From: Lolium rigidum
Lineage: Eukaryota; Streptophyta; Magnoliopsida; Poales; Poaceae
Assembly: GCF_022539505.1 (NCBI RefSeq)
Contig: NC_061508.1
Span: 268,776,736-268,840,735 of the forward strand
Direction: 5' to 3'
Length of the DNA stretch: 64,000 bases
Shown: piece by piece, positions 34,011 through 62,248 of the stretch
Position numbering within the stretch: position 1 is the first letter of the stretch
How the letters are laid out: each line of letters begins with the position of its first letter
Notes under the pieces: generated by a model
What the model was told of the DNA's origin: nothing
Seen by the model: the letters and a program-made list of their open reading frames with translations, nothing else
Database searches by the model: none
Made by a program: the position numbers and the translations under genes

Positions 34011-37000
34011 TCAGCCCTTTCCTTGGTGCAGGAAGTTGAAACAAGGATTCTTCCGGATCAGAGGTGGCATATCGACATCTGTGAACTCGAATTCTGTCAT
34101 CGGCTTCAGGATGTCGTTCACCGTGAATGGAATGCTGCAGTTACAAATGCCATGAACAACGGTTCAGAGGGAAGCCATTAAGAAAACTCTAGTTATCTAT
34201 ATTGAACTCTTACTGGAGAACTAACCTTGCTGAGTCATTATCCAACAACAAAGAATAGTCCACTGGATCATTCACAGCGTCCGTCATTAGATTTTCCATA
34301 CTCGAGAGGACCTACATTCACGTTTTTACTCATCAAGAACCAAAATTTAGTGATAAATAAATATGGACACCGTGGCTGATGCTGCATAAATCTCACTGCC
34401 AGTGGGGATTAGAACGAGCTTACATCAGTAAGGGGTGAATCGTCACTGGAGCCATTCTCATCCCGATAAATCGTACAGATGCGGTATAGCTGAGGTATGC
34501 TAAGCACCTGAAACCTTACAACATTAGTGACATGTCACATCCAACAGACGTGATAATGAGCACTTAACATAGTTCAGATACCACTTACAGGGCACACAAT
34601 GCAGGTGATTTCTTTCAATGTTTTCTTTTGCTTTCGACGCATAGTCTAATAATACAATTTGTTACATTATATCCACTCTGCAACTTGCATACCAAAGACC
34701 AGTCAGTATAGAGCACTTACCAGGAATATAGCAGCCTTCCTAATGTGCTTCATTTCTTCCCAGGAAGATCCTGCATACTATGTGCACCATATATCATTAG
34801 CCTACAAATTACAGAAGATCGAAAATGTGGAGGGATAGACAATTCATCCAGACCTCTTCAGTCTCATAAGTGCACCATTGTTCTAACTTAGCTAATCCAG
34901 CTTTGATATATTCTCCGGTGCGGAACGAACAGCACTCAGATAGGAGCAGACTACAAGATAAGGAGCATCATAAGTTGATAACTATCTTTCATTTTTTCAG
35001 TCCAAAGTATCTTAATAGTTAAGAATCTTATTTGAAAGTGTATAATGATGTACAGGCACTCAGGAATAGATATATCTTACCTATTGAACAACTGGACATC
35101 AATAAATGAGAAGACTTGAGTGAACATCTTGCTGATTAAGGATGATGGGACCTGCATATATAGTAATAAAAGGCATGTCAATGTGCGCAGTTACTTAAAA
35201 AATGGTGTGTGAATAAATCAGACTTTTGTTACATACATAATTGGATTTCAAAACACCCAAGTACTCTGTTAATATATTCACAATGCTCTGCCAATGGTCA
35301 AACAGTGCTTGGCATATTATTGTAGGTGCCTGCATAAAAAGTGTCAGCAAAAGGAAAGCCTGATGTTGATCTCTTTATAAAAGGAAATGCATTATAGTTC
35401 ATTATCCATGCCTCGATGCAACACCCAAGCAATGGAGATATCTCTTTCACCAAAGTGTCTCTTATCATTCCATAAACCTTCTCAAGGAAACCTGTAAGGT
35501 GTCCCTTGAAAACCAGAGCAGGACGTTTGGCTTCAACTTGCTGAAGATCACCCTTTCTACCAATCAATTGGATACCACCAGAAGATCGAGTTCTCTATTG
35601 TTTTAACAAGCAATGAATTAAAAAAATTTCATACTATAAATCTAGAGCACCAAAAGTAAAAAAACTGGAGAGAAGATGTTTTACCGTGATTATCATATCA
35701 ACTATTCCTCTCCGAGAATTGAATCTACCTTCTGTAGCTGTTTTCAATGTTCGTTGTATAAGCAGAAGTAATGTTGATGAATTGGAGAGCCAGTATGCTA
35801 GCATATCATTGACCTGGGCCTGTGGAATGGAAAGGAAGAAGTTGAGCTTACCTACGTACATAGAATTGCAACAAAACGAAAAATCTATGTTATTTCTGCA
35901 TGTATTTTTTTGTTCTAACTCGGAGAGGGAGTATTTATCTACCGCTTTCCATGAGTTTCTCTCCTCCGAGGCTACTCTTCCTCAACTTTCATGTCCTAGT
36001 GATCATGCTAAGAATGATGGTGTTTCTGAGTGCATCATATCGATCATAAAGAGAGAGCTCGTACCCTTGTTGTTTCCTCCTTTGTCCTTGCTCCTTTTTG
36101 GGACGAAGTTATATTTTTCTATGTCATCAATCTTCAGCCTCCACTCCACCACGTCTTTAGAATAAGTGTGGTGAGGTTTAGTTTGGTGTCTTGCCATATA
36201 TGTCACACTCTCCTGCGCAAGATCCAGATGATTTTCCTTTTCATTGCAGTTGTCGTTCCACAGTTTCATCTAATACTCAGTCATCCTTCTAACCATCATG
36301 TAGGCTCTTCGTGATCACTTCTCTCTTGAGCTTCCAAAAATATACAGGAATGATTTTTGTGTTGGTGACTGGCAGCTAAATGTGCCTTTACCTCCTAAAC
36401 CAGTCTGTGTCACTTGCAAATGGATATACAAAGAAACCAAGCCAGATGGCTTTGTGGAACGCTATAAAGCTCGCCTGTTGCAAAAAGTTTTCAACAGGCT
36501 CAACGGAGATATTATCATTACTGGAGATGACAAGGTGGTGATTTCAAGACTAAAAAGGTGCCTAAGCCAAGCCTTTGAGGTGAAAGACCTTGGAAAACTT
36601 AAAACTTTCTTGGAATAGAAGTGCCTAGATCGAAAAAGGGCATAGCATTGTCTCAAAGAAAGTATATGTTGGATCTTCTGAGTGAGACATGTTAGGATGT
36701 CACACAACATCAGCTTCCATTGGTCACAATCATAAGCTAACAGCTCAGTCTGGTGCTGCAGTGGACAAGGAGAAATATCAGAGCCTTGTTGGGTGATTGA
36801 TATACTTTGTGCGACCCAAGATCAGATATTGCCTATGCAGTAAGTACAGTACGCAGATATATGCATGAACCCAGAAGTGGACAACTCGAGGTTGTTCATC
36901 AAATCGTAAGGTATCTAAAGGGTACTCCAAGGAAAGTTCTTATGTCCGGAAGTAATGGACACCTTAAAGTGGATGTTACTCTGATGCATATTGGGCAAGC

Positions 37001-38047
37001 AGCTTCGATGACTGCGGATCAACCTTTGGCAATTGTGTGTTTGTTGGAGGGAATTTGGTGTCATGGAGAAACAAGAATCGTCCTGTGGTCTCAAAATGAA
37101 CTGCAGAAACTGAGTATAGAGCCATGTCACAAGGGCTAAGTAAAATGCTATGGGTAAGCAGATTGAAAGTGTTAACATAAGGAAGTCTGAATGTGTAGTG
37201 TGATAACAAGTATGCCAAAAGTACAGCAAACAGCCCAGTTCAGTAAGACAGAACAAAGCATGTGGAAATAGATAGGTTATCAAGGAAACTAGATGCTGGC
37301 ATCATAGCTAAAGCATTTGAGTTCTGGACAACAGATTACTTGACACAAGGATTAGGGACTAAGGAATGCAAATTTGCTTGTGACGAGATGGGAATGATAG
37401 ACATATATCACCCATCTTGAGGGCGGAGTGTTGGATACCCTACTGGGTGTATGCCTGCACAGCCCACAAACGTCATAACCTTCTTTAGGAGCAGCTTAGC
37501 AAGGTGAGGTTTATGACTCCAGAGTTGACGATCAGAGCAGGAACTGCGCCCATGGCGGCTCAGGTCAGTCCCCTCCTTGAAGCCAACAAAAGTTTTGTTG
37601 TCCAGATATAGCATTTCGTTTTGAATTTATATCATACAGGTAAACAAAGGCGGGTTACACTTTTTTTTTTGAACTGAGGCGGGTTGCACTTACTTGAACT
37701 ATATGCGTAGGAAGCCAAATCAGGAATCATCCCATACACATGTATACAAGTGCTAGAACTAATTGGTTGAGCGTGGACCCCAGTGTCGTAAAGCCATGAG
37801 TTTTTTGTGAGTCGTGTATAGAGAAACTACTTAATTAAAACTGTAATATCAAATGGTAGGTGATTTTTACCTTTACAGTACTGAACATGGTCGCAATAAT
37901 ACGCTCGAAAACATTAGTCTTTCCAGCTTGAAATGATTTCCAGTGTAAAAGGCACATGTAGATAAGACAGGCTGCAATAGGCCTGCCTTTCGAGAATCCA
38001 AGATCTTGACATATGCACATATTCAATGTGTCCACATTTTCTTGGTC
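34011..38047 (-). other. Myosin XI globular tail (dilute domain), exons 7-17
   Basis: Reads [20 protein letters not shown] and [19 protein letters not shown], then [138 protein letters not shown] and [20 protein letters not shown]. This is the whole cargo-binding tail of a plant class XI myosin in the normal order and exon style; head, IQ motifs and coiled coil are absent. Myosin XI tails bind MyoB-type receptors and vesicle cargo. The segment between LCIE and DHWQ is shorter than in ordinary myosin XI (the usual PRTSR-like loop is reduced). No stop or frameshift interrupts it. Confidence 0.92.
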
Positions 38048-41000
38048 CTGGGGCATAAAGTTTAAACATGATCAAAGTAGAGTGAGGATCAAAGTAGCTG
38101 GACAGAGTTAGCTTTCCATAAGCAGGGAAAGAGGAACAGAAAACTACTTAAGGTATCAGTTGAACTGCACTTCCATTGAGTACCCTGATTAGAATAGATT
38201 GAAATTTTTGTTGGAAGGAACTTACCGAAAAGCTTTTTAATCGTTGTGGATGTGATGATTTTACTACATATAATGCGTTTGGCGATTGGGCTGGTGGCAG
38301 ATAAACAACCGTCAGCTTTTCCGTGTGCATCACATTGCTTGACATGTTGAAACTATCATCCATGACATGCTTAGGTGTGAATCTATTTCCCCTTACTACG
38401 ATGGTCTGTACAAGGAATTCATCGTTGCAATCCATGTACTCACGCACCTTTTCCAGTGTAACAAAGACAGTAAATGTGGATTGTGGGCAGAGAAAGCCAC
38501 TAGTCGGTTCAATGCTGTAGCTGTTTCTCGCCCTCTTCACCCCAAACGAAAACGCAACATGCTCCACTGTATTGTTAGTTAGGTGTACAGGGCAACGCCC
38601 CTGTTTGTTAAACACCAAACGAAACTGGAGCTCACGGGGATTGATCACAAGTATCTCTCTTGGGTCAGACGTAATCTGCGTAAAAAGAGCTCCAAGTATT
38701 AGCAAGGAATAACATATGGACAAATTTCCTCCAGCGTTGAATTCGATTTGAATGTTCAACACTAGATCTGTTGTCTTACTGGTGTATTGAGTAAAAGGTC
38801 TCATAGAAAATTTGTATCTTCTTTGGTGATGTGAAATTCGTTCCACACTAGCTAGTTTCCTTAAAAGAAAAAATAAAGAGCTAGCAAATACAATATATTC
38901 TACAGTGCATTATCATTAAATGGTCACACCTGAAGTGTTGATGATTTTTCATCACTGCCGACATGAAAATTGGTGCTTCCCCATCCAATAAGCCTCTCAA
39001 TAATTTCTGTTGTCGCCGGCCTTTTCTTTGGGTCAGTTTCCAAGCAGCTTAGACCCATTTCCAAGCAACTTCTTATTTGTTGGTAGTCTGTTTCTACTGA
39101 TGCTGCTTCTGACCTTTTTCTCCAATTTTTAAGCACCTTCAAATTAGCACAGAGAGATAAAATCAAACTATGCAAAGATAAAACATACCATTGTCTCTGT
39201 CACAAACAACCTCCATCTTGAGTGTTGAAACACAGTTGCTTACAAGCTCAATGAAGTCATGATACGACGTTCCGGTAGAAGAAGGCCAAGGGTAGTTCCT
39301 CTGCCCTGTTATTATCTCTATGATTATCACACCCAAACTAAATATGTCTGACTTAGTTGTTATTATGCCTCTGTTTATGTATTCTGGTGCCATGTAACCA
39401 CTGCACCGCAGCATACAAAATGAAACTTTGAAGCGTTAAGAGAACTTGAAAGAAAAGGCTTGTAACTGCAACTAAAAAACAACCGATTATCAAGGGGCAT
39501 TTAACTTACAATGTTCCATCAAGACTTTTAGTGCAAGCTCGAGTTTGTTGTTCACCAAAAAGTCGTGACACACCAAAATCCGCAATCTTTGGTAGCATAT
39601 TGTCACCAAGTAATATGTTTGCTGGTTTTAGGTCCATGTGAATTATAGGAGTATTAACTTGCCACTCCTTATGAATGTAATGTAAACCATAACAAATCCC
39701 ACTAATTATTTTGTAGCGCTTGTGCCAATCAAGTCCACATGATTCATCTGCATGTGTAACCAAAAGAGGGGTGTTCAACAAAAAAGTATTTGAAAATATA
39801 TATTGTTGTGCTGATATTTTATATTAATGGCCAGGCTGCAAAGTTCTAGTGTTCTACAAATATTATCAGCATCAGCATCATATATTAATTGATCTGTATA
39901 TCATTTAACGGAACTGCCTCATTTAGCTCTACAAAATAACTTATGCACAGAATCAAGACGAACAAGGCAAACGAAGTTCAAATATTGCTTAATGGAATCA
40001 AACTACGGTTACTAGTACAGTTAAAATGACATTAGCTATAATTCCCATGTGCTGCTACGGAATTTTCTTTCATTGCTTGAGTTGTTCAAATCTTTGTGTC
40101 ATCGTAATCCCTAACTTCATGCAAAATAAATAAATAAACTATGTAAAACTATATAAAATATAAAATTAATCGAAACTTAACATACATATATCTACTACAT
40201 AAAATATATGATAATTGCGGTAATTAATATCTTGGTAACTTAAAAAAGATCTTTATAAGAGTAAAGATACTACACCCACTCAACCTCCAATAGTAGTACT
40301 CCAAGAATTTGCTAAACTACACTCTGATTGTCTTAATGAAGAACAAGTATCCTAGAGCAATGAATTCCAAGAAAGGTATTTCCAGAAAAATAAAATGTAT
40401 TTTCTAAAGGAGAGTGCACATGTGAACAAATAGGTAATCTTAATGGCGTTTGCTCCGGTACAACCCCCTCCACTAAACTCAAAGCAAACTTAAATACAAG
40501 AACGGCTGAGATCGCTTGATACCCCTGTGAAGATACCTCGTTAGATTTGGGTGGAATCGATGCCCTTTGTCTCGGGCTCGGGTTCGTGTTTATATAGGCC
40601 GACAACGGCAAGATAGGTACATGGTTGTTGTTCACGTGTGAGAGAAGCTAGGGAACGATCTGATCTTTATACAACAGATCAGATCGGTTACAAGGATACT
40701 TATCAAACTAAACTAACATATCTCCACACGTGACAAGGATGTTACAACGAAATATATGTAGCGCTAACACCCTCCTCAATCACAACCCTTTCTAAGGTTG
40801 AGATTGTGCTTGAACTCTTCAAGTTGCCGTGCTTGGTAAGGCCTTTGTAAAACCATCTCGCCACCCGATCCCCCGAGGGAATAAATCTGATCTCAAGCAA
40901 TTTGTTTGCTACTCTTTCTCTTACAAAATGAAAGTCAATTTCAATGTGCTTTGTCCTTGCATGAAAAACAGGATTAGCGGAAAGATAGGTTGCTCCCATA

Positions 41001-44000
41001 TTATCACACCATAAACAGGATACTCGTTTCCTTTGAACACCAAGTTCTCCAAGTAGAGACTCAATCCAAATTACTTCAGCTGTGGCATTGGCCAAAGCTT
41101 TGTACTCGCTTCGTGCTTGATCTAGAAACTGTGGCCTGTTTTCACGGCACTCCAAGAGATTAAGTTAGGACCAAAATAAACGAGCAAAACCACCTGTAGA
41201 TCTTCTGTCATCTACACAACCTGCCCGATCAGCATCCGAGAAAGCACTCACTAATGTGGAAGAAGACTTTCTAAATGTCAAACCAAGGCTTGTAGTCCCT
41301 TTGATGTATCTCAATATTCTTTTCACAGACTGTCCAATGAACAGTGGTTGGTGCATGTAAATATTGGCATACCTTGTTGACTGAAAAAGCAATGTCCGGC
41401 CGGGTAAGAGTTAAGTACTTGAAGTCCTCCAACTATGCTTCGTACCTTGTGCCGTCTTCCGGTCCAAGTGCATCACCTTCAAAGGCCGACAATTTTTCGA
41501 TGATGAAAGAGGCGTGGGTGCTATCTTAGCATCCTTCATTCCCACTCTAGCCAATAAATCGGATGCATACTTTTCTTGGGTTAGTACAACACCATCACTT
41601 AATTTTCTAACTTCAACGCCAAGAAAATAATGCAAGTCACCTAAATCCTTGAGTGCAAAAGCTGAACTCAAGTCCTTGAGAAGTGAAGTAATTGCTTTGT
41701 TTGAGGAGCTTGTGACAATAATGTCATCAACATATACTAGCACAAAGATGATGATACCTGACTTATTGTAAATGAACGAGTGACGTGTCAGCCTTAGATG
41801 CTAGGAAACCAAGCTCTTGTAACTTTGAACTTAGCTTGGCAAACCATGCTCTTGGAGCTTGCTTGAGACCATACGAGAGATTTATCAAGTTTGCACACAT
41901 GAAATGGTGCACGGGGATCTTCATAGCTCGGTGGCTGCTTCATATACACTTCCTCTTCCAGAACACCGTGAAGAAACGCGTTCTTTACATCCAATTGCAC
42001 GAGACTCCATCCTCTAGAAAGCTGAAATAGCTAGAACAAGTCTAATAGTAGCAACTTTAACAACAGGACTAAAAGTATCCTCATAATCTAAGCCATATCG
42101 TTGTTTAAAACCTTTAGCTACTAATCCGGCCTTATATCTATCTATTGTTCCATCGGCATTTCTTTTGACCCTATATACCCATTTACAATCTATAAGATTG
42201 ATGCCTTGCTTATGTGGTACTAGATGCCAAGTTTTGTTTTCTACAAGTGCATGATATTCATCATTCATAGCATTTTTCCAATTCTTATCAGCTAGTGCAA
42301 TTTGTAACGTAGCGGGTTCTTCGAAAATGCAAGAGAGACCGTAGCGAACTGTACCGTCCGTATACCTCTTTGGCTTGCGTTTTCCAGTTTGTTGCCTGGT
42401 GCGATACACAGGCTCGGCTACAGGAGCATCATTCGCAGAAGATCCTGGCCCTGGCTCCCCCTGCTGCTGCGCCTGTGCAGAGGATCGTGGTGGAGAAGCG
42501 CGCCCCTCCTGGCGACATGATGGCCCAATGATTGGCCTGTCACGGGCGGGAGAGCCACCGATTGGCCCGCTTCGCGCGCGAAACGATGCCGGTTGGTCGA
42601 CCGGATGCTCGGCGTGGGTCGCGTGAGCCCGGGCGGTGGAGCTGGGGCGCGACGCGTGTAGACACGGACGGAGGCGCCGTTTGGGTCACCGCGGGAGGCG
42701 TCGACGTGGACGACGTGGGTTCGCCTGCGTGAGATCGAGGCGGATCGCCTGTCCGACGCGCGGATCCCGACGCGAGAGCCGATCCGCGGGCGGAATCTTC
42801 GGAGATCGCGAGAGGAATCATCATCGGGATCTGTCCCGGAGGCTGTCGTTTTGCCCCATATCACTATTTTCACCGTTTGAGCTCGAATCGAGCCATTTTG
42901 CTCCAAATTTGCTCCCGCATCTTGTCGGTGCACTCCGCGGAGACACTATGGGAACAAAAGGTGAAACATCGAGTGTTAGATCGGTACATTGTTGCTCCCC
43001 GGGAAGTTGTTCCGATGAATTCCGAAGAGATTCCGGAAGTAGAAGAATGGCTTGGCGAAGGAGAGCTCCGGCGTTGGGATGAAGTTTGGAGAATGGGAAA
43101 AGCTGTTTCATCAAACACAACGTCTCGGGAGATATACACTCGGCCAGAGGCGACGTCTAAGCACTTCACACCTTTGTGCATATTACTATAACCAAGGAAT
43201 ACGCATTGCTTAGATCGAAAGGCTAATTTGCGTTGGTTATAGGGTCTAAGGTTGGGCCGGCGAGGCACACCCAAAGACACGAAGAGATGCATAGTCGGGT
43301 TTTTGGTGGAGTAGACGTTCCATAGGTGTTTCATAGTTGATGACTTTGGAGGGGAGCATATTAATGAGATGAGTGGCGGTAGAAAAAGCTTCATCCCAAA
43401 ATTTTAATGGCATGGATGCATTGGCAAGAAGAGCAAGCCCAACTTCTACAATGTGGCGATGTTTCCGTTCTGCGGAGCCATTTTGTTGGTGGGCATGAGG
43501 GCATGAGAGATGATGAGAAATGCCGATGCTTTGAAAGAAGGGAGTTAGTTTTTCATATTCACCGCCCCCATCGGTTTGTATGGCAATGATCTTTTTACCA
43601 AATTGACGTTCAACAAGATTCGGAAATTCTTGAAAACCCGAAATACTTCAGATTTTTTCTTGAGAAGAAATATCCATAAAAATTTACTAAAGTCATCTAT
43701 AAAGCTTACATAGTATGAAAACCGACCTACGAGAGGATGGTGCAGGTCCCCAAACATCCGAGAATACAAGTTCTAGAGGGGAGGTTGACACACTAGTGGA
43801 CCTTGTGTAAGGTAGTTGATGACTTTTTGCTCTTTGACATGAATCACAAACCGACTCAATGCTAGAATTGCTAGAAAAAGGGAGATCATATTTCCTAAGA
43901 ATCTTTTGAACGACTTTGAACGAAGGATGTCCTAAACGATCATGCCACCCGGTAGCCGAAGGCTTGGTGGCGCTAAGAGCTTGTTTATTCGTGCTTGATG

Positions 44001-46811
44001 ATGATGATACCAACGGGTAGAGACCTCGGATGCATCGGCCTTTAAACGGAATTTTCTTCGTGACCCGATCCTTGACATAGAAGAACCACGGGTGAAATTC
44101 AACAAAGACACCGTTATCCAAAGTAAAGCGATGGACGAAAACAAGATTTTTTGAGGCACATGGAACATGAAGAACATTGTATAGATGGAATTTTTTGGAT
44201 GGGGAATCAACGAATGCATGACCAACATGGTCGATGTTCATACCTGTTCCATTGGCCGCTTGTATCTTGTCGTGGCCGTTGTACTTCTCCTTCATGGTGA
44301 GCTTATCAAGCTCCCCAGTGATGTGGTCGGTGGCGCCGGTGTCTGAGTACCAGTTGGTGTCGATACCGTAGGCGGCGTTGACACCCTTCTCCCGATCTTC
44401 TTCTTCATCATCGGAGTAGCGGTGCCAACACTTCCGAGCGGGATGGCTCTGCCTTGCCGCAGATTTGGCGAGACGATGAGTTCGCGGTCGTTGCCGCCGC
44501 CGCTGCCTTGATGACGTCCGCCGCCGCCACCGCGGCGTCCACCATTGCCGCCTCCTTGCCGGCGGCCTCGACCACGGCCATAGCCACGGCCTCCTCCACC
44601 ACGTCCACGGGGCGCTCCTTGGCCACCCCGGCGTGGTCCACCGCGTCCTCGCGCGGCGGCGTTGGCGAGCCACCGTGAGTGGGGACACCGAGCATCTCCA
44701 TGTGATTGTCGTAGGAGGTCACCCGGGAGTACAGCTCTCCCACGGTTAGCTTGATGTCGGGGTTGGCTCCAATGGCTGCGAAGAGCGGATTATAGGGATC
44801 ATCGAGACCGGCGAGCGGATACTCAACCGGCTCGTCCTCCTCTATCCTCCGCCCCGCGGCTGCCGGCTCATCGGCAATCGCCTTCATCCGGGCGAAGTAT
44901 TGGGAGGTGGTTTTCCCTTCCTTCTTGGTGTTGGCGAGTTTGACCCGGAGGTTGGCGATGCGGGTCCTCGGCCGGGTGGCGAACATGGACCTTATTGCAG
45001 TCCATACGGCGAGACGATGTCTTCATGCCGATCACGGACAAGCATGATCTCCCCGGACGGAGAATTCACCAGGTAGGAAAGGACGTTCGGTCCGTCTCGC
45101 ATCCACGCCTCGTAGGCGGGGTTGGCCACCTCGCTCTTCTCGCCATCCTTGTCGACGGAGAGGGTGGCCGGCGGTGCTTTGGTGGTTCCATCTAGGTACC
45201 CCATCGGGCGAGCACCACGGATCGCCGGGAGAGCTTGTGTCTCCCACGGGAGGAAGTTGTCCCTCGTGAGCTTCTCGGCCGTTCCTCGGCTTGGCGAGAG
45301 GATTGGCCATGGCGATGGATGAGGATGGAAGGCTCATAGATTGGTTTTGTGGAAGAGTGGCTCGATACCATGTGAAGATACCTCGTTAGATTTGGGTGGA
45401 ATCGATGCCCTTTGTCTCGGGCTCGGGTTCGTGTTTATATAGGCCGACAACGGCAAGATAGGTACATGGTTGTTGTTCACGTGTGAGAGAAGCTAGGGAA
45501 CGATCTGATCTTTATACAACAGATCAGATCGGTTACAAGGATACTTATCAAACTAAACTAACATATCTCCACACGTGACAAGGATGTTACAACAGAAATA
45601 TATGTAGCGCTAACAACCCCTTCGTTTAATATTAAACGGGTATACGTAGCCCTGCCGTATGACTCAACTAAATTGTATGAATATGCCACATACATATGTA
45701 TATAATTATGTATGTACGTGGATTATTGGTGGCGATTCGTCCGCGCGGTGGCGGTCGTGGCCGCCGGGCAGGAGGGGCGACAAGGTGGTGATGGGCGGCC
45801 ACGAGGCACTGTGAGGCGACGTTGGGCGACACGAGCCTCGGCAATGCCTCGTAGGTCCGTACCGGTATGGTTGGGGCGGCGTGCAGGCTAGACGGCGGCG
45901 TGAACGGCCAGACAGTCCGCCATAGGCAGTCCGGTGCAATTCGGCCAGACTGTCCATCGCGTTGGAAACGAGACTAGCCGGACTATCTTGCATGCCGGAC
46001 TGTCGTGTGGTGTTCGCGCCGGACTGTCGTGTGGTGTTTGCACAGGACTGTCTTGCGGTGCCCGCCGAACTGTCTTGCGACGACTGTATACCTATACGTG
46101 GACATATTGAGTTTTGGATTTCGGTTTAGACATGGGCCTAAACAATACCGGTTGGGTTTTGTTGAGTTCGGGGAGGGGGCTGTACGAGCAAGCCTCAATC
46201 TTAATTTAGTAAGAGCTATGCTTACAAACCACACAAATTGCAATATCGAAAAAAAAGATTTCTTTTTAATTTTGGAAACAACATATGCTATATCATTAAC
46301 TGTCATACCTGCAAGATGCTTATCGAGGCTTCCGTTAGGCATATATTCCAAGCAAAGCAACCTCTCAGCCGTCTCAGCAAAAATGGGTATTCCATCGTAT
46401 TTTAAAAATAAATTCTGTGTTTCATAGCAATAGCCTGTACATCGCACTATATTTGGGTGGTTAAGACTCATAAGATGATTAACCTCGTTCTCAAATTGCT
46501 TCTGAGAGCCCGGCATTAACACCTTAAGCCTCTTCACAGCCATCAGTCCTCCATTTGGTAGCTCTCCCTGTTTCGAGTCTCTTGTTAGTATGGATACAGT
46601 TTTCTGGTCAATTACATATTGAGAAGACGAAAACTATATGCTTTACTCTTACCTTATATACCACACCAAAACCACCTACACCAAGTATTTGCTGAGCAGA
46701 GAAGCTGTTTGTGATGTCATTTAAATATTGCAATGTTAGCTTGCGTGGTCCTGCAACTTTTTCTTGTAGTGTGATCTCCTGGTTATCGTGCCTGCTAGAT
46801 TCACCGTCCAT
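34011..46811 (-). CDS. Kinase-MSP-myosin XI globular tail fusion gene, 17 exons
   Basis: Predicted exons: 46811-46653, 46567-46309, 39747-39510, 39400-39244, 39136-38930 (kinase); 38675-38226 (MSP); 38047-37871, 35819-35729, 35593-35412, 35329-35237, 35151-35081, 34950-34854, 34777-34721, 34645-34589, 34507-34424, 34311-34226, 34134-34011 (myosin tail). All junctions keep frame and give about 862 residues ending FNFLHQGKG and TGA. Donors are GT except after exon 9 (GC at 35411-35410). Exon 8 has two possible donors; only the one after 35729, with the acceptor before 35593, keeps frame. The MSP exon ends TCG|GTAAGT and the myosin part begins CCCCAG|GAC, both phase 0, with only 178 bases between. 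No start codon or promoter-like sequence is evident for a separate myosin gene. Kinase-MSP proteins are known in wheat relatives (Snn3-D1 type); the myosin extension is, as far as I know, undescribed. Two adjacent genes remain possible. Confidence 0.7.
35880..37440 (+). mobile_element. Old Ty1/copia remnant in intron 7
   Basis: Opposite strand to the host gene. Recognisable pieces: integrase-like [20 protein letters not shown] (about 35930), [16 protein letters not shown] (36070), reverse transcriptase [20 protein letters not shown] (36415), [16 protein letters not shown] (36570), [12 protein letters not shown] (36830) and an RNase H tail with TKHVEIDR (37255). Stops and frameshifts are everywhere. 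No LTR was found, so it is a fragment. Confidence 0.75.
38226..38675 (-). other. MSP/VAP domain exon of the fusion gene
   Basis: A single 150-codon exon with both junctions in phase 0. It contains [37 protein letters not shown] and [20 protein letters not shown], then [13 protein letters not shown]. This is the immunoglobulin-like MSP fold as found in VAP27 proteins, which sit at ER-plasma membrane contacts. In grass kinase-MSP proteins the domain directly follows the kinase, as here. It ends [12 protein letters not shown] before a strong donor (GTAAGT). Confidence 0.9.
40526..40769 (-). repeat. Copia1 3' LTR
   Basis: On the plus strand runs from TGTGAAGATACC to GTAGCGCTAACA. On the minus strand it contains a TATATAAA box (complement of about 40590) and an inverted repeat around ATCTGATC/GATCAGAT. 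Confidence 0.97.
40790..45320 (-). pseudogene. Copia1 gag-pol, frameshifted
   Basis: The order is copia-type. Gag has [35 protein letters not shown] and [16 protein letters not shown]. Protease is [12 protein letters not shown] (about 44340). Integrase has [12 protein letters not shown] with [11 protein letters not shown] (43850-43950). Reverse transcriptase has [20 protein letters not shown] (42180) and [10 protein letters not shown] (41735). RNase H has [17 protein letters not shown] (41230) and [20 protein letters not shown] (41010). The frame is broken many times: near the gag start, at about 45000, in the glycine-rich nucleocapsid part, at 43700, across integrase and between reverse transcriptase pieces. 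The element cannot encode its own proteins, yet its LTRs are nearly identical. Confidence 0.85.
45371..45615 (-). repeat. Copia1 5' LTR
   Basis: Same sequence as the LTR at 40526-40769 except for acaacagaaa in place of acaacgaaa near the TG end. Followed (minus direction) by the primer-binding site. Confidence 0.97.
45992..46085. repeat. Short tandem repeat of ~24 bp in intron 2
   Basis: Four degenerate units around ccggactgtcgtgtggtgtt and ccgaactgtcttgcg lie beside each other. The motif ccggac/ccagac-tgtc also occurs singly upstream (45910-45990). Position is intronic, to the right of Copia1. Confidence 0.6.
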
Positions 46812-50449: not shown

Positions 50450-50722
50450 TGGCATCAGAGCGACTCTTCCTCGATGCCTAGCTGCCCACGTACGACACCC
50501 AAAACCGCCGCCGCCGCTCATTGAGCCTCCGCCGCCCACAACCTTGCCGCGCCGCTCCTTGAGCCTCTGCCGCCGACATCAACGACCTCAAGACTCCGGC
50601 CAGATCAATTCCTGATCGCCGCTCCCCAAACAATCTACAACCGATCGTGCTCGCCGCCGATCTAACGACAAAACCCTACAACCGATCGTGCTCGTTGCCG
50701 ATCCGACGACAACATCCACGCC

Positions 50723-53700
50723 ATGTCCTCATCCTCAGCCGCTCTGCCTCCGTCACCTACAGCTCTGGCCTCTACCCTTGGCGCACCCCCTGCCCAAACC
50801 CTAACCCGTGGCAACTTCTTGCTATGGAAAGTGTTGGTGCTGCCTGCGTTCCGCGGTGCTCACTTGATGGGGCTGCTGGACGGCACTGATGTCGCACCCC
50901 CTGACAAGATCGACTCTGAAGATGAGAACAAGAGGAAGATCACCATTTATAACCCCGCCTACATCTCCTGGATTGCACCGGATCAGCAAGTGTTGCGGTT
51001 CCTGCTCAACTCCCTCTCCCCGGACATCCTATCGCATGTCCTTGGGATGAACACTACAACTGAAGCCTATCAATGCCATGTTTGCATCAGCCTCTCGGTC
51101 CAAGGTTCAGCATCTCCGGACCAAGCTTCAGGAGACGAAGAAGCTCACCAAATCTGTAGATCAATACTTCCCGTTGATGAGAGGTTTTGCCTCTAAACTC
51201 ACTGCTCTTGGCAAGACTATCGAGGACAATGAGGTTCTCAGCTACATTCTGCAAGGCCTCGACAAGGATCACTACAATGCGCTTATCACCTTTGTCAATG
51301 GCAACCCGGGTACCTTTCTGGATGAACTGTATGATCAGTTGTATGCATATGATGTGCGCAATGCTCCTTCCGAAGATACTGGATCCTTCTCCTCCTCTGT
51401 CAACATTGCTGGTCGTGACTATGACTCCCGTTCACGTGCCCGCGCTCCAGACCGTGGTTGCCAAGACTATCAAGGAGGGGGCGGCGGTTGTAGTGGTGGT
51501 AGCTACCGCCGCGACCGCCGTGATGATGACTGCAGAGATCGCCGCGACCGCCGTGATGATGATCGCCGGGACGAGAACTGGCGCCGATATGACTGTCTTG
51601 ATGATGATGGTGGTGGCTATCGCCGAGACCGCCGTGATGATGACCGATGTGATGGCAATTGGCGCCGGGATGAGTGTCGTGGAGATGACAGGCGTGATCG
51701 TCGTTCTGATGATGGTGGCTACATGTGCCAAGGGCGTCGCCAGGATCATGCCCCCACTCCCTATGTCAACACTGAATGCCAAATATGCAAGATTCATGGC
51801 CACCCTGCGAGTGACTGCTGGTGGCGTTATTCTAATGACAAGAATGATGATGGCGATCGTGGCCATAAAAGTGCACACATTGCGTCTTATGGTGTTGACA
51901 CCAACTGGTACACTGACACGGGTGTCACTGATCACATCACCAGCGAGATTAGCAAGCTCTCCCCCCATGACAAGTGCAATGGGCATGATCGTGTCCGCAA
52001 TGCTGAGGGTACAGGTATGAATATTAGTCATATTGGTCATTCAATGTTGCGCACCCCTCATGGTTCATTTGATCTCAACAAAATTCTTCACGTTTCTAGT
52101 GCATCTAAAAATCTGTTATCTATTCATCTATTTACACTTGATAATCATGGCTTTATTGAGTTTAATCATTTTTTCTTTCTCATTAAGGACACAAAGACTC
52201 GAAGAGTTATGTTTAGGGGCCCCTTCTATGGTGGTCTCTACCCTTTGGTGCTCATGTTCCATGAGACCGCCAAGCATGCATTCATCACAATAAAGCCGTC
52301 ATCCTCTACATGGCATCGTCGTTTAGGCCATCCGTCTTCATTTGTCATTCAACAAGTTCTTCGCAAGAATAAAATAGCTTACACCCCAGAAAGTACTCCA
52401 TATGTTTGTGACTCTTGTCAGTTGGCCAAGAGCCATCAGTTACCATATCCCATATCTACCAGTGTATCCACTGCTCCTTTGGAGCAAAAAATTTCTGATG
52501 TATGGGGTCATGCCCCTCTTTTTGTTGGGAAACATGCATACTATGTAAGATTTACAGATGATTTTAGCAAATTCACATGGATATATTTGCTCAAAAAGTG
52601 TTCTAATGTTTTATCCAACGTTTCTTAATTATCAGCAGTATGTTCAACGCAAGTTTGATAGGAAAAATATTACTATGCAAACTGATTGGGGGCGAATATG
52701 AGAAACTCAATAGCTTTTTCCAGAAAGTTGGTATTACACATCATGTCTCATGTCCACATGCACATCAACAAAATGGCTATGTTGAACAAAAACATCGTCA
52801 TATCGTTGAAGTTGGTCTTGCATTACTTGCAAATACATCCATGCCCCTCAAGTTTTTGGATGAGGCTTTTCTTACTGCCACTTTTCTCATCAATATTCTT
52901 CCTTGCAAGGTTCTTGATTTTACAACTCCTACTGAGCGCCTCCTTCATGTCACACTCAATTACGATGCTCTTAGAATTTTTGGCTGCGCTTATTGGCCCA
53001 ATATTCGTCCCTATAATAAACAAAAACTTGCTTTCCGCTCTAAACAATGTGTTTTCCTTGGTTACAGTCATCTCCATAAAGGTGTCAAATGTTTTGATGT
53101 CTCGACGTGTCTATATCTCTCGTGATGTTGTTTTTTATGAGAATGTGTTCCCCTTTGTCTCTCTTCATCCTAATGTCGGTGCCCTTCTTAAACAGCAAAT
53201 TCTTCTTCTACCATCATCTACTTCTCCTGAGGGTGCTCACATTATTGATGATCATATGCCTAATATTGTTCATGTTACTGATGTGTACCAAGTTTCCGCA
53301 GTTGCAGGTGAAAATTCATCTCAAATGATGCACAAATGAGCTCACAATCGCATGTTGAAATGGAGCAAGAAACAACCAAAACTGGCTCCGAACAAGAGGA
53401 GGATCCCGAGGCTGATCTCTAGGCTGATCCGGGGAGCTTTGCCCCGCCTTGCGTCACGCCACGACGTGGTCATCCTACCGCCAACCCGTCCTCGCCACGT
53501 GTCGACGAGACCTCCACTGCCCGCATGCATGCGCACGCACATGCGCATGTCCCCCTGCTCTGCTCCTGCCTGGCGTGCTGAACCAGGCCCCGCCTGCCTA
53601 GGAATCTCCATCCCTGGCGGCTGCCCAGGAATCTCCTAGGGGATCTTCTGTGGCCAGCGAGGTTGCAGATGATTCTGCTGCTTCTTCCGCTGAAGAACAC

Positions 53701-55345
53701 CCACCTTCTCATGTTGTTTCACCGCCTGCGTCTCCACCTCATCTTCGTACTTGGATTCAGCGAGGTATACGAAAACCCAAACAATATACCGATGGTACTG
53801 TTCGCTATGGCATGCTCCCCTCTACAGGCGAACCTATCAAACTAGCTGAGGCTCTTAGTGATCCAAACTGGCGTCAAGCAATGGAGGATGAATATAGAGC
53901 ACTGCTTGATAATAAGATGTGGCACCTAGTTCCTCCTAGCAGCAACAAGAATATTACTGATTGCAAATGGGTATACCGCATCAAGAGAAAGTCAGATGGC
54001 TCCATTGATCGCTATAAAGCAAAACTAGTTGCCAAAGGTTTGAAAAAAAGGTATGACATTGATTATGAAGATACATTTAGTCCTGTGGTTAAAATGGCTA
54101 CTATCAGAACTGTTTTATCTCTCTCTGTCTCTCGTGGATGAAGTCTACGGCAGCTAGATGTCAAGAACACGTTTTTACATGGTGTTCTGGAAGAAGAAGT
54201 CTATATGAAGCATCCACCAGGTTTTGAGGATCTCCAGTCTCCGTGTTATATCTGGAAACTTGACCAAGCTCTCTCTATGGACTGAAACAGACACCACGGG
54301 CATGGTATTCCCGGCTGAGTTGCAAGCTGTGTGATCTTGGTTTCTCCCCATCCAAGGCTAATACTTCACTGTTTTTTTTTTTGACAAGTTAAGTATCACT
54401 ATGTTTGTTCTCATTTATGTTGATGACATCATTGTCACAAGCTCCTCTGATCATGCTAGCACTTCTTCGCAATCTCAATAAGAATTTTGCAATCAAAGAC
54501 CTTGGTGATTTAATTTTTTTCCATGGTATTGAGGTAAAACGGTTGGGAAATGGCTTGCTTCTGACTCAGAAAAAATATGCTACAGAGTTACTTGACAAAG
54601 TTGGTATGCGCAATTGCAAATCTGCTCCCACACCTTTATCCTCTACAGAGCATCTCACTCTTACACAAGGCACTGCCCTCGGTCCCGATGACATCACAAA
54701 GCATTGTTGGAGCCTTGCAATACTTGACTCTTACTCGTCCTGACTTGTCCTTCTCCGTCAACAAGGTTTGTCAGTATCTTCATGCTCCTACTACAGAACA
54801 TTGGACAGTTGTAAGACGCATTCTCAGATATGTGAAGGACACACGGAATCTTGGAATCACTTTTACAAAGTCCTCATCTACCTTTCTTAGCGCATTTTCC
54901 GATGCAGATTGGGCAGGTTCCCTTGATGATCGTCGCTCCACAAGTGGTTTTGCTATATTTGTTGGGCCAAATCCGGTCTCTTGGAGTGCTCGAAAACAAG
55001 CTACAGCGTCTCGCTCCAGTACTGAGGCTGAACATAAAGCTTTAGCTATTGCTACAGCTGAGCTCATATGGATTGAAGCTCTTCTCTTGAAACTTGGAGT
55101 CAAATTAAAGGAAAAAACAAGTCTATAGTGTGACAACTTAGGTGCTACCTATCTGTCTGTCAATCCTGTTTTTCATGCTCGCACCAAACATATCGAGAAT
55201 GATTTTCATTTTGCTCGTGAACGTTTTGCTAGTAACTTGGCTATTAGGTTTGTTTCTAGTAAAGATCAAGTTGCAGATAGATTTACAAAGGCAAGTTGCT
55301 TGATGAATTCAAAGCGTAATCTCAATCTTTCTATAGGCTGAGATT
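50723..55345 (+). pseudogene. Copia2 gag-pol, partly open
   Basis: Gag starts MSSSSAALPPSPTALAST at 50723 and shifts frame near 51070. A 516-codon frame (51078-52628) then holds the rest of gag, a long Arg/Asp-rich tract (about 51500-51720), the zinc knuckle CQICKIHGHPASDC (51777), protease WYTDTGVTDHIT (51906) and integrase HRRLGHPSSFVI with CDSCQLAKSH. A stop at 52626 is followed by more integrase ([20 protein letters not shown], 52724). Reverse transcriptase resumes at 53740 ([36 protein letters not shown] after a T-run insertion near 54371). RNase H is at about 54890-55270 ([18 protein letters not shown]). Five or more breaks make it inactive. Confidence 0.9.
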
Positions 55346-58795: not shown

Positions 58796-59475
58796 GCCTG
58801 GCCGGGGGTGATATAGCCGAAAGGGCTATGTGCTGCCGAGCGCACCCATGCCCCGGTGCGCCGGCAGTAACTCGGGCGGTTATTTCTGCTCAACAACCAC
58901 TCCCCTCACTACTACCACTCCACTCCTCCACACAAACCCGAGCCTTCTCCCAACCCAGCTCATTTTTGCCCATTTCTATCCCCAATTTCACCAATTTGAC
59001 CAAACAAAATCATATTTTTTGAGCAAATCTTCCCTTCCTACATGCATCTCCCACATCCCCTATGTAGATCTAGATCTACTATCCCGCATTGACCGCTCAA
59101 TCTAGATCTAGATCTAGAAAGTCGGCTTCCATACGCCGTGGTAGCGGCGCGACGTCTCGATCTCGTTGACGAATATATCAAACAAATAGGTGATTAATGA
59201 ACAAATTGAGGAATGAAATCGACGTATGTTGGACATTTGAAGCAAAGCTCTCGTGTGTGGCATATATATATGTTGTGCTTGTGCTAGTGTGTGTTGGCGT
59301 TGAAAACGAGTTGCCAACGTTGCGCCGAAATGTTGATTCTTTAAGTTTCCGTTTCGGCACATTTCTGGCGCTCCTATGTCCTACCGTGTAGGAAGGTCAT
59401 GCCGAAATTTTCCGTGAAAACTACCGACGGATGCATGGTTCTAATCAATTATGTAATCTTACCATGCAGGCGATA

Positions 59476-61190
59476 ATGGTTATCGAGATGAGTGAAAGCA
59501 TCGTGATGAGATATCTGAAACACGCGATCATCGACATGTATGAAAATAACCGCACGGAGGTATTGTGTCCGTGCCGGAGATGCAAACGAGGGAAATGGTT
59601 TGACCCGTATTCAGGCAAATTGCAGGGGCACCTGCTCACTAATGGTTTCATGCATGGACACACTCAATGGATGAGTGATGATGGCGCGGAGGTCAATGGG
59701 GCGACGGCGGCAGGTGGTAAAAATGGCCGGCAAGAAGGAGAACATCATGATATTGATGACGATGAAGAGTTTGTCGCACAGGACGATAACCTTGACGACG
59801 ACAATAACCTTGACGACGACGAAGAGGTGCCGCTAGCTTCAGTCGTGCGGGACCCTCATCTTCAAGATCTGCTTCTCGAAAAGACGAAAGGCGCCAAGCG
59901 GAAATCAAAGCTTGAGCAACTCGAGATAGACTCGAATACTCCGTTGTACGACTCAGGTCGCGGCTTGGGGGAGTCTCGCTTGAGAGTAGCTCTCGATGTG
60001 CTGCAGATGAAGGCGAAACACGGATGGACGGACAAAAGCGTCGACGAAATCCTGGAATACGTGAAAGATCTCCTTCCTGCCGGGAACACGTGTCCTGGTA
60101 GTCTAGCCGAGGCCAAGAGAATCACGTGCCCTCTCTACTTACCCCACGAAAAGTATCACGCCTGCATCAACGATCGTATCATGTATCGCAAGGAGCACAT
60201 GGACAAGACCAAATGTCCCGTGTGTGAAGCTGAACGGTACAAGAAAGGGAAGAAGAAAGCTCCTCGGAAAGTTGTGTGGTACTTCCCGCTCGCCCCCGGC
60301 TTCAACGGTTCTACGCGGACCGCAAGGAAGCAAAGCTCATGCGTGCGGCACGCGAGAAAGAAAGGAGGCGGTGTTGAATGATGAAGAGCGGATTGAGCAC
60401 CCAGGTGCTGACGCACCCTTCGGATGCAAGCCGGTGGAAAGCATTAGACAATGAATTCGGAAGTTTTGGGGCAGATCCCGAAACATCAGGTTGGGTGCGA
60501 GCACGGACGGATTCAATCCGTTCGGAAACCAGAGCAGCACACATAGCACATGGCCCGTGTTTGTATGGATCTACAACCTCCCGCCCGGCTGTGCATGAAG
60601 AGGAAGTACATACAGATGAGTATGCTAATTCAAGGGCCGACACAGCCAGGAAACGATATCAACATGTATCTCGAACTATTAAAGGAGGAGCTTGAAACGT
60701 TGTGGGCGGAGGAAGGGGTAGATACATGGGACGCCATCGCGGAAGAATATTTCCCTTTGAGAGCCGCGTTAATCACGACGGTGCAGGACTACCTCGGATA
60801 CGGCTACATTTCGTGCCAGGTGTGCCATGGACACAAGGCATGTGTCAGGTGCATGGAAGAGACGATGTTTTTGCAGCTTGGTAAGGATCCCGGCTCTTCG
60901 AAAACAGTTTACATGGGGCATCGAAGGTGGCTACGGAAGACCGACCCGTGGAGAAAGCGTGGAGATCCGTTCGATGGTACAAATGAACCCCGAGGACCTC
61001 CACGTAAGAAGAGCGGCGAAGAGATCGATACATTACCGAAAGGTTGGAAGGAGTGCCTCGCGCCGGAAAGATTCGTCAAAAGCCTGGAGAGAAGAAGAAG
61101 AAAAAGGAAACGACGCCGCTCATTGGTGTATGGAAAAGGAGGTCCGTGTTTTGGGACTTGCCGTACTGGAAAATTCTCGATACACCTCAC
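59476..61190 (+). pseudogene. CACTA transposase (Transpos_assoc plus tnp2), broken
   Basis: MVIEMSESIVMRYLKHAIID at 59476, just after an acceptor-like ccatgcag, begins the transposase-associated domain; CPCRRCKRGKWFDPYSGKLQ gives its Cys motif. Acidic linker 59740-59840 (DDDEEFVAQDDN). The tnp2 region has HGWTDKSVDEILEYVKDLLP, KCPVCEAERYKKGKKKAPRK and VVWYFPLAPGF (60276). After frame changes at about 60310-60550 it has QGPTQPGNDINMYLELLKEE (60640), LGYGYISCQVCHGHKACVRC (60800) and TVYMGHRRWLRKTDPWR (60907). It ends at PYWKILDTPH where the gypsy LTR starts. In En/Spm elements this protein cuts the ends; here both the frameshifts and the truncation inactivate it. Confidence 0.88.
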
Positions 61191-62248
61191 TGTTGCGGTC
61201 AGAAACCCACCGGCGAGCAGTGACGGGCGGGAGGCCCCCAGGACTGCGGCTAGCCCTGGTCCCTCCGAGCGACGGCCCGCAAAGACTCGGCACGCACGTC
61301 CGATGCTGGTGCAAGGGCGTGCCACCTGACCTATACCGGTCGGGAAGGTGTTGGATTTGCCTCGCTTAGTTTCCTGCATGGCATACACGTAAACATTAAA
61401 TACGAGCCTCGATCGGCTCTCAGGTTGTCCTGTGAATCGGCTCAAGGAGCCGATTCACCCATGATTCGTACGAGGTGTATGATCATATGGTGGTCCTGCT
61501 TGATCAAAATAAAGCTAAAACGACCTACTACGATTTAGGGTTTTCACCACATAATCGGAACATCCTACGTGTGATTGAGCCTGGCGGCCACGCACGGTGA
61601 TCGTAAACTGTCCCTAGACAAGGCCTAAAAACCAACATGAAGTTGATCCCCGGAACATCCTGTCTAGGGCTAGCAAACTACACCCTACGCGCCACTGGAT
61701 CCTTCAACCCATTTGTAAGGCCTAAATATGCAGATATTAAACTAATCCTTGAAGAACAAGGAGCAATCATAACGGATCGGATCTACTAAATAATGATCAA
61801 GCGGGGTGCCGCCCTTACACCTAAGATAGGTGTAAGGGCGGCTAGACGTCTAAGGGTTGCACGGACGAAAGCATAAGATACGATGAAACAATGCTAACCC
61901 TAACACATCTATGATAACTACGTTGCTCGCCATCAACAAGGCTTCAGCACGAGCAACGCATGAACAGCGAATAAACGTGTCTGCCCTAGATCGCAAGATG
62001 CGATCTAGACAGACATGATGCTTACCCGGAAGAAAACCCTCGAGACAAGGGAGTTGGTGATGCGCCTAGATTGGTTTGTGGTAAACGTGATTGTTGTTTA
62101 TTTCATAAACCCTAGATACATATTTATAGTCCGTAGACTTTCTAACGTGGGAATAATCCCAACCGTGCACGAGACAAATTCTATCTAACCGACACGTATC
62201 CTACTATATTACAGATACACGGGCAAACTAGCCCAAACTTTGCATACA
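61191..62248 (-). repeat. LTR of a minus-strand gypsy element
   Basis: Plus-strand start TGTTGCGGTCAGAAACC at 61191, right after ctcac (candidate target duplication). The inner edge is placed at CATACA, 62248, with modest certainty. On the minus strand it contains a TATA box (ctataaatatg, complement of about 62125) and an AATAAA-like aataaac downstream. This is the 3' LTR of an element whose 5' end is beyond 64000. Confidence 0.75.

What the first reader, a model, noticed from the sequence alone, without database searches (positions are those of the whole stretch)
34011..46811. A kinase-MSP-myosin XI tail triple fusion with an intact reading
Seen: 17 exons keep one frame from a non-RD kinase through an MSP domain into a complete myosin XI globular tail. 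The MSP exon ends at a strong phase-0 donor (38226|GTAAGT) and the first myosin exon starts at a phase-0 acceptor 178 bases on, with no start codon context or promoter-like sequence between. Known: kinase-MSP proteins exist in wheat relatives and one (Snn3-D1) controls response to a fungal toxin; VAP/MSP proteins act at ER contacts with the actin system; myosin XI tails bind cargo receptors. Inference: the myosin tail may be an integrated bait, or couple a kinase to myosin cargo adaptors. The tail exons show no decay, so they are under selection or very recent.
Basis: partly seen in the sequence, partly recalled or inferred. Interest (0 to 1): 0.88.

Follow-up and report, generated by a model that had tools for sequence, protein, structure and literature searches.

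The report
Grass kinase–MSP–myosin tail fusion gene
A grass gene joins a protein kinase, an MSP domain and the cargo-binding tail of a myosin motor into one protein; relatives carry and transcribe the same fusion, and it most likely works as an intracellular immune kinase that uses the myosin tail as bait, which is untested.

Summary
The fusion is real, transcribed in relatives and old. A 17-exon, 877-codon frame runs from 46811 to 34011 (minus strand): non-RD kinase, MSP, myosin XI globular tail (GTD), without motor, IQ or coiled coil. Relative P0001 (94% identical) lies on contigs of at most 2,956 nt, too short for the introns, so it is spliced RNA crossing the MSP–myosin junction. The architecture recurs in Festuca, barley, Brachypodium, Aegilops, Miscanthus, Eragrostis and, on another kinase branch, wheat. 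Native grass GTDs stay 97% identical; the fused tail is 73% (Brachypodium) to 81% (barley) identical yet constrained. Two predicted Miscanthus paralogues share 96% identical kinase–MSP parts but carry different C-terminal modules from the same junction. Cereal kinase fusions are known immune receptors, and a review mentions PK-MSP genes with uncharacterised integrated domains; my searches showed no report of a myosin tail. Best reading: a kinase-fusion immune receptor with an exchangeable bait slot. Bait, scaffold and dominant-negative roles are all untested.

The parts
46653..46811 (-). exon 1, start codon and kinase N-lobe (glycine loop GVGGFGVV)
46309..46567 (-). exon 2, kinase (AVK lysine)
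39510..39747 (-). exon 3, kinase catalytic loop HMDLKPAN (non-RD) and DFG
39244..39400 (-). exon 4, kinase APE region; 3' end corrected by comparison with relatives
38930..39136 (-). exon 5, kinase C-lobe; 5' end corrected by comparison with relatives
38226..38675 (-). exon 6, MSP domain, phase-0 donor at 38226
38048..38225 (-). intron 6, the 178-base junction intron; its retention would end the protein 25 residues after the MSP exon (kinase-MSP form)
37871..38047 (-). exon 7, start of the myosin XI globular tail (DQENVDTL...)
35685..35819 (-). exon 8, globular tail
35412..35594 (-). exon 9, globular tail; GC donor
35237..35329 (-). exon 10, globular tail; lacks the RTSRASLIKG... loop of Sorghum myosin
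35081..35151 (-). exon 11, globular tail, DIL region
34854..34950 (-). exon 12, DIL
34721..34777 (-). exon 13, DIL
34589..34645 (-). exon 14, DIL
34424..34507 (-). exon 15, DIL and globular tail
34226..34311 (-). exon 16, globular tail
34011..34134 (-). exon 17, globular tail end and stop codon
40514..45621 (-). Copia-like LTR retrotransposon inside intron 2 (LTR-like repeats 45621-45360 and 40776-40514, 97.7% identical over 264 columns)
   Evidence: named Copia by eye, not searched

Best explanation
One protein-coding gene of the cereal kinase-fusion kind. Shown: a non-RD kinase with its catalytic motifs is joined in frame to an MSP domain and a myosin XI globular tail, and relatives carry and transcribe the same architecture. 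Inferred: the globular tail is an integrated bait (decoy). A pathogen molecule that acts on the myosin XI cargo-binding domain, to disturb actin-based delivery of defence material, would bind the fused copy; the kinase would then phosphorylate the ligand, the tail or a partner and start cell death, probably through a helper NLR as reported for Sr62 and RWT4. The MSP may take part in recognition or place the protein at ER membranes. The position after the MSP exon behaves as a slot in which C-terminal modules are exchanged.
For: Gene and domains. Kinase motifs: a pattern search found glycine loop, AVK, HxDLKP, DFG and APE together in 7 of 11 proteins (window, P0001, P0003, P0005, P0007, P0010, P0169). 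RNA of relatives: P0001 (876 aa), P0002 (611 aa, MSP+GTD) and P0129 (kinase-MSP, then exon 7 out of frame) lie on contigs of at most 2,956, 2,498 and 2,355 nt, while here the CDS is 2,634 nt and the 14 shortest introns add 1,555. Conserved fusion: of 285 fetched proteins 11 hold kinase (whole or fragment)+MSP+GTD and 3 more kinase+GTD. Fast but constrained tail: window-Brachypodium 72.8% and window-barley 81.1%, against 96.6-97.2% in five pairs of native grass GTDs; of 235 myosin-invariant columns 117 are kept in all eight Pooideae fusions compared and 43 replaced in every one; variation concentrates at sites that vary in myosins (0 of 10,000 permutations as extreme); about 5.4 stops expected on the window lineage if neutral, P(0)=0.005. 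Slot: Miscanthus P0122 (GTD) and P0169 (IG_AIR9+DUF7046), 456 of 475 aligned positions identical up to the junction. GTD hosts fall on at least three kinase branches. Family context: Sr43 and Pm4 papers (passages); Snn3 in a review (passages). Myosin XI in callose deposition (passages).
Against: No effector, resistance phenotype or RNA of this plant was examined. No DNA of relatives, so no dN/dS; the P(0) figure ignores indels and that the gene was picked for being intact. Half of the myosin-invariant columns are kept, as a working adaptor binder would also show. P0129 has lost the tail by frame, so the tail is dispensable in that copy. Three models skip tail exons (P0003, P0008, P0133). In 4 of 11 proteins the motif search missed something: P0122 and P0133 start late, P0155 lacks the catalytic-loop region, P0129 lacks the AVK pattern and reads KPAD. 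P0122 and P0169 are gene predictions.
Confidence: 0.5

Rival explanations
1. Scaffold: the fused tail binds normal myosin XI cargo adaptors (MyoB and the like) or vesicle proteins and brings the kinase to them, so that it phosphorylates trafficking components.
For: The model of relative P0002 keeps the GTD fold (7kfl, TM 0.84 by target) and 117 of 235 myosin-invariant columns are unchanged. GTDs bind MyoB, MadA/B, WIT and DCP1 (PMC8153422, passages).
Against: 43 of 235 invariant columns are replaced in every Pooideae fusion compared, and the tail diverges far faster than native GTD. The module is replaced by an unrelated one in Miscanthus.
Confidence: 0.22
2. Dominant-negative regulator: the motor-less tail competes with native myosin XI for cargo adaptors and slows transport, perhaps as a defence response; the kinase only controls it.
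For: Over-expressed GTDs block P-body movement, by competition for cargo sites in the authors' view (PMC8153422, passages). Headless XI-K variants are reported for Arabidopsis and Brachypodium (PMC3935558, passages).
Against: Same divergence of invariant sites. In maize the headless protein was not detected. Does not explain different modules on one chassis.
Confidence: 0.12
3. Neutral passenger or incipient pseudogene: the kinase-MSP part is the working protein (Snn3-like) and the tail is tolerated baggage.
For: P0129 reads exon 7 out of frame; three models skip tail exons; one GC donor; a retrotransposon sits in intron 2.
Against: No stop or frameshift in the window tail where about 5.4 stops are expected if neutral; change avoids myosin-invariant sites; the tail is more conserved than the MSP in 26 of 28 pairs.
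Confidence: 0.12
4. Two adjacent genes (a kinase-MSP gene and a headless myosin) read together by annotation.
For: An in-frame Met lies at codon 10 of exon 7; headless myosins exist.
Against: Short contigs of relatives span the junction; the fused architecture recurs in several grasses; only 178 bases separate the exons.
Confidence: 0.04

Closest known systems
Snn3 (Snn3-D1), wheat protein kinase-MSP protein (Zhang et al. 2021, not held; seen through passages in PMC9528087 and PMC10260397)
   Same: Intracellular kinase followed by MSP; the review says PK-MSP genes are specific to monocots, with uncharacterised integrated domains present
   Different: As described there Snn3 has a C-terminal MSP; here a 387-residue myosin XI globular tail follows. 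No Snn3 sequence was on hand to compare
Cereal kinase fusion proteins with a proposed integrated decoy (Sr43, Lr9, Pm4)
   Same: Kinase joined to a non-kinase domain in grasses; repeated fusion events; in Sr43 and Lr9 the extra part is proposed as decoy
   Different: Those have proven resistance phenotypes; 'myosin' does not occur in the Sr43 and Lr9 papers. This fusion is older than the Triticeae, whereas the Sr43 paper calls resistance-type fusions apparently unique to Triticeae
Myosin XI (Sorghum myosin-17-like P0012; Arabidopsis XI-K, 7kfl)
   Same: The globular tail with the DIL domain; fold kept in the modelled relative
   Different: No motor, IQ motifs or coiled coil; a loop lost; 43 of 235 invariant columns changed in every Pooideae fusion compared
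Headless myosin XI (HDK; maize O1 short transcript)
   Same: Myosin tail without motor
   Different: Tail is joined to kinase and MSP, and lacks the coiled coil kept in the maize headless form

Membership tests
Kinase fusion protein (KFP) | At least one kinase domain fused to another domain in one polypeptide | tested here: met
   junction-spanning contigs of relatives
Kinase fusion protein (KFP) | One kinase with apparently functional catalytic residues | tested here: met
   motifs in the window protein; activity not assayed
Kinase fusion protein (KFP) | Confers race-specific response to a pathogen | not testable with these tools
   no phenotype data
PK-MSP (Snn3-type) | Kinase directly followed by an MSP domain | tested here: met
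   Pkinase 39-327, MSP 358-460 in the 886-aa first model
PK-MSP (Snn3-type) | Sequence kinship with Snn3-D1 | not tested
   no Snn3-D1 sequence was on hand
Myosin XI | Motor domain, IQ motifs, coiled coil, globular tail | tested here: not met
   only the globular tail matches
Myosin XI globular tail domain | Sequence and fold of the GTD including DIL | tested here: met
   sequence; fold only on relative P0002, 7kfl TM 0.84 by target
Integrated decoy | Domain kin to a host pathogen target, exchanged between receptors | tested here: inconclusive
   exchange seen between two predicted Miscanthus models; target status untested

The most novel reading that the evidence does not exclude
A grass-wide class of intracellular kinase receptors, tens of millions of years old (age of the grass splits recalled, not computed), whose sensor is a captured myosin XI cargo-binding domain placed in an exchangeable slot after the MSP. 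It would imply that pathogens act on the myosin XI cargo domain (and, from the Miscanthus sister gene, on an AIR9-like protein), and that grasses have captured this tail more than once.
Probability: 0.4. Interest if true: 0.86.

Novelty: new variant of a known kind. Interest (0 to 1): 0.72.

Why it matters
Integrated domains in plant immune receptors point to host proteins that pathogens attack. A myosin XI cargo domain in this role would name the organelle-transport machinery as a direct target and give a natural reagent to fish for the ligand. A kinase-MSP protein controls the wheat response to a fungal toxin, so an enlarged family with swappable tails bears on cereal disease. A kinase fusion shared by Brachypodium and Poeae (and possibly Miscanthus and Eragrostis) would also widen the statement that such genes seem confined to Triticeae. 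Brachypodium, a model grass, holds a relative of the same architecture (BRADI_1g37626v3), so the question can be tested at once.

Tried and rejected
Rejected: two adjacent genes (junction-spanning contigs in relatives); very recent fusion (shared across Pooideae); full motor protein (residues 1-1112 of Sorghum myosin gave no match); one single origin for every kinase-GTD protein (AU p 0.022 on the tail tree with Urochloa P0023; the kinase tree puts Triticum P0133 and Urochloa P0023 on other branches). One origin of the Pooideae, Triticum, Miscanthus and Eragrostis tails is not rejected on the tail tree (p 0.226), but holding the Triticum kinase with the eight Pooideae hosts as one clade is rejected (p 7e-05). 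Urochloa P0023 is annotated 'partial' and may be an annotation join.

Led nowhere: dN/dS (no DNA of grass relatives within reach); the first structure model, of P0001, was poor (mean pLDDT 50) and not used; the second (P0002, MSP+GTD, mean pLDDT 61) is good mainly in the tail helices. The species of the window was not identified beyond closeness to Festuca glaucescens (Loliinae) among the proteins seen. In one search I wrongly labelled P0006 and P0009 (models of fusion genes) as tail-less, so its one-clade test is void; one search replaces it. In one search the first test (Pooideae+Miscanthus+Eragrostis, p 8.9e-06) left out three Urochloa tandem kinases that the tree puts inside that group, so it does not bear on the tails.

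Literature: (10 searches of the held open-access library, of which I saw the listings of 5 to 20 papers each) showed no paper on a kinase-MSP-myosin fusion. 'Myosin' occurs 0 times in the main text of the Sr43 and Lr9 papers and once, in a reference, in the wheat integrated-domain paper. Zhang 2021 (Snn3-D1) and Reveguk 2025 (tandem kinases) were not held, so either may mention it.

Full report
What was checked. The minus strand of 46811..34011 was rebuilt exon by exon. All 17 exons keep one frame. Comparison with relatives moved the end of exon 4 to 39244 and the start of exon 5 to 39136, giving 877 codons; what I had first taken as the end of exon 4 is intron. Of 16 introns 15 are GT-AG and intron 9 is GC-AG; in the relatives' proteins the residues on both sides of that intron are joined in the same way (CIE/AP). 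Pfam finds Pkinase, MSP and DIL. The tail is a myosin XI globular tail (7kfl, E 2.7e-115). Sorghum myosin matches from residue 1113 on, beginning within one codon of the exon 7 acceptor.

Is it one gene? The protein database holds the same architecture. P0001, 876 aa and 94% identical to the window protein, comes from contigs of at most 2,956 nt. The gene here has 2,634 nt of CDS, and even its 14 shortest introns add 1,555 nt, so P0001 can only be spliced RNA (or a processed copy). P0002 (611 aa, 8 member sequences, contig at most 2,498 nt) spans MSP to tail. P0129 (534 aa, 6 members, contig at most 2,355 nt) runs through kinase and MSP, then reads exon 7 in another frame: 43 of its last 48 residues align to the window's exon 7 read in the third frame, E 2.8e-15, 70% identical. 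P0129 therefore also spans the junction, and is at the same time a natural tail-loss form. That these 'lgn' contigs are assembled public RNA reads is my inference from their length; their species are not given.

How widespread? The three searches reported 2,124, 6,040 and 1,952 proteins under the cut-off and listed the best 120 each, 285 different ones. Of these 285, 11 hold kinase (whole or fragment), MSP and GTD, and 3 more hold kinase and GTD without MSP; unlisted rows were not seen. Named sources of the 14 are Festuca glaucescens, Hordeum vulgare, Brachypodium distachyon, Aegilops geniculata, Miscanthus floridulus, Eragrostis curvula, Triticum aestivum and Urochloa humidicola. Some are two models of one gene (P0006/P0007).

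Where did the tail come from, and how often? In a tree of 32 tails (13 fused, 19 native, chosen by hand; P0006 and P0009 left out as second models; one odd Linum row dropped) the 13 fused and 7 native grass tails form one clade (100/99). The nine Pooideae tails form one clade (100/100). Triticum P0133 is their sister (87/95), Miscanthus and Eragrostis pair off (98/92) outside the native grass tails, and Urochloa P0023 sits on a zero-length branch beside the Urochloa myosin (93/0). A single origin is not rejected for all but Urochloa (p 0.226), and is rejected with Urochloa (p 0.022). On the kinase tree of 43 rows the window's group plus Miscanthus, Eragrostis and three Urochloa tandem kinases form one group (90/89), while Triticum P0133 and Urochloa P0023 lie elsewhere. 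So GTDs sit on at least three kinase branches. Four rows of the tail tree and five of the kinase tree have long branches, so deeper joins are unsure.

Is the tail kept by selection? Among eight Pooideae proteins the tail is more conserved than the MSP in 26 of 28 pairs; against the kinase, in the 15 pairs with whole kinases, the kinase is more conserved in 12 and the tail in 3. With Brachypodium: kinase 76.9%, MSP 61.3%, GTD 72.6%; with barley 80.3, 67.3 and 81.1%. Five pairs of native grass GTDs are 96.6-97.2% identical, so fused tails change far faster than native ones. Change is not random: 40% of 238 myosin-invariant sites vary among the eight Pooideae fusions, against 63% of 143 myosin-variable sites, and none of 10,000 permutations reached this difference. 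Of 235 invariant columns 117 are kept in all eight, 43 are replaced in every one with a residue there, the rest are mixed, and a loop of about 16 residues after CIQAP is gone. A model of the close relative P0002 matches the myosin XI-K cargo domain at TM 0.84 by target.

The exchangeable slot. Miscanthus P0122 and P0169 share 456 of 475 aligned positions through kinase and MSP (13 mismatches, so they are not isoforms of one gene), then part at the same point (RLEDFP): P0122 continues with the GTD, P0169 with IG_AIR9 and DUF7046. Other relatives of this kinase are fused to a second kinase, to MSP and a second kinase, or sit in kinase-kinase-MSP-WD40 proteins. This is the behaviour expected of a receptor chassis with variable sensor modules. 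Caveat: both Miscanthus proteins are gene predictions, and P0122 lacks the kinase start.

How it most likely works. The Sr43 paper proposes that kinase fusion proteins carry an integrated decoy while the kinase signals (PMC10260397, passages). Pm4 binds and phosphorylates its effector, and Sr62 and RWT4 need a helper NLR (PMC12830362, passages); the same paper finds that phosphorylation of the effector alone is not enough. Snn3, a kinase-MSP protein, mediates the response to Tox3, and PK-MSP genes are described as monocot-specific with uncharacterised integrated domains (PMC9528087, passages). Myosin XI is needed for callose deposition (PMC9779068, passages), and a cited title ties it to penetration resistance. 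I therefore favour a kinase-fusion immune receptor with the myosin tail as bait (0.5). A scaffold that brings the kinase to cargo adaptors (0.22), a dominant-negative brake on transport (0.12) and a tolerated passenger (0.12) remain. Shown: gene, fusion, transcription in relatives, conservation, constraint. Inferred: bait role, helper NLR, ER placement by MSP.

Against this reading. No phenotype, ligand or RNA of this plant was examined. Retention of half of the invariant columns suits a scaffold equally well. P0129 shows the tail can be lost, and models P0003, P0008 and P0133 skip tail exons (seen by eye), which may be splicing or prediction error. In 4 of 11 proteins the kinase motif search missed a motif (P0122, P0129, P0133, P0155), in part because models start late or are broken.

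Other features. Intron 2 holds a Copia-like element whose LTR-like ends are 97.7% identical, so its insertion is probably much younger than the fusion. Retention of intron 6 would end the protein 25 residues after the MSP exon, a possible kinase-MSP isoform; Pm4 is reported to act through splice variants (title in a reference list).

Noticed in passing
window 9374-17414: Tandem array of a 347-bp unit, 23.2 copies, 97% matches: a satellite-like block.
   Followed up: no
window 40514-45621: Copia-like retrotransposon with near-identical LTR-like ends inside intron 2 of the fusion gene; the gene stays open around it.
   Followed up: partly
window 36304-37139: Stretch resembling Copia reverse transcriptase on the plus strand inside intron 7, judged by eye from the ORF list.
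   Followed up: no
window 50563-55128 and 59392-61329: Second Copia-like element, and a CACTA-type transposase-like ORF, both judged by eye from the ORF list.
   Followed up: no
P0169 (Miscanthus floridulus): Near-copy of the same kinase-MSP chassis carrying an AIR9-type Ig and DUF7046 module instead of the myosin tail.
   Followed up: partly
P0177, P0178, P0188, P0193, P0197, P0198: Sorghum and panicoid relatives join the same type of kinase to a second, MAPKKK-like kinase (names and sequences).
   Followed up: no
P0200 (Festuca glaucescens): Predicted protein joining a proteasome RPN5-like part to kinases of this family; may be an annotation join.
   Followed up: no
P0023 (Urochloa humidicola): Another kinase branch joined to an almost native myosin tail, without MSP; a recent independent capture or an annotation join.
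   Followed up: partly
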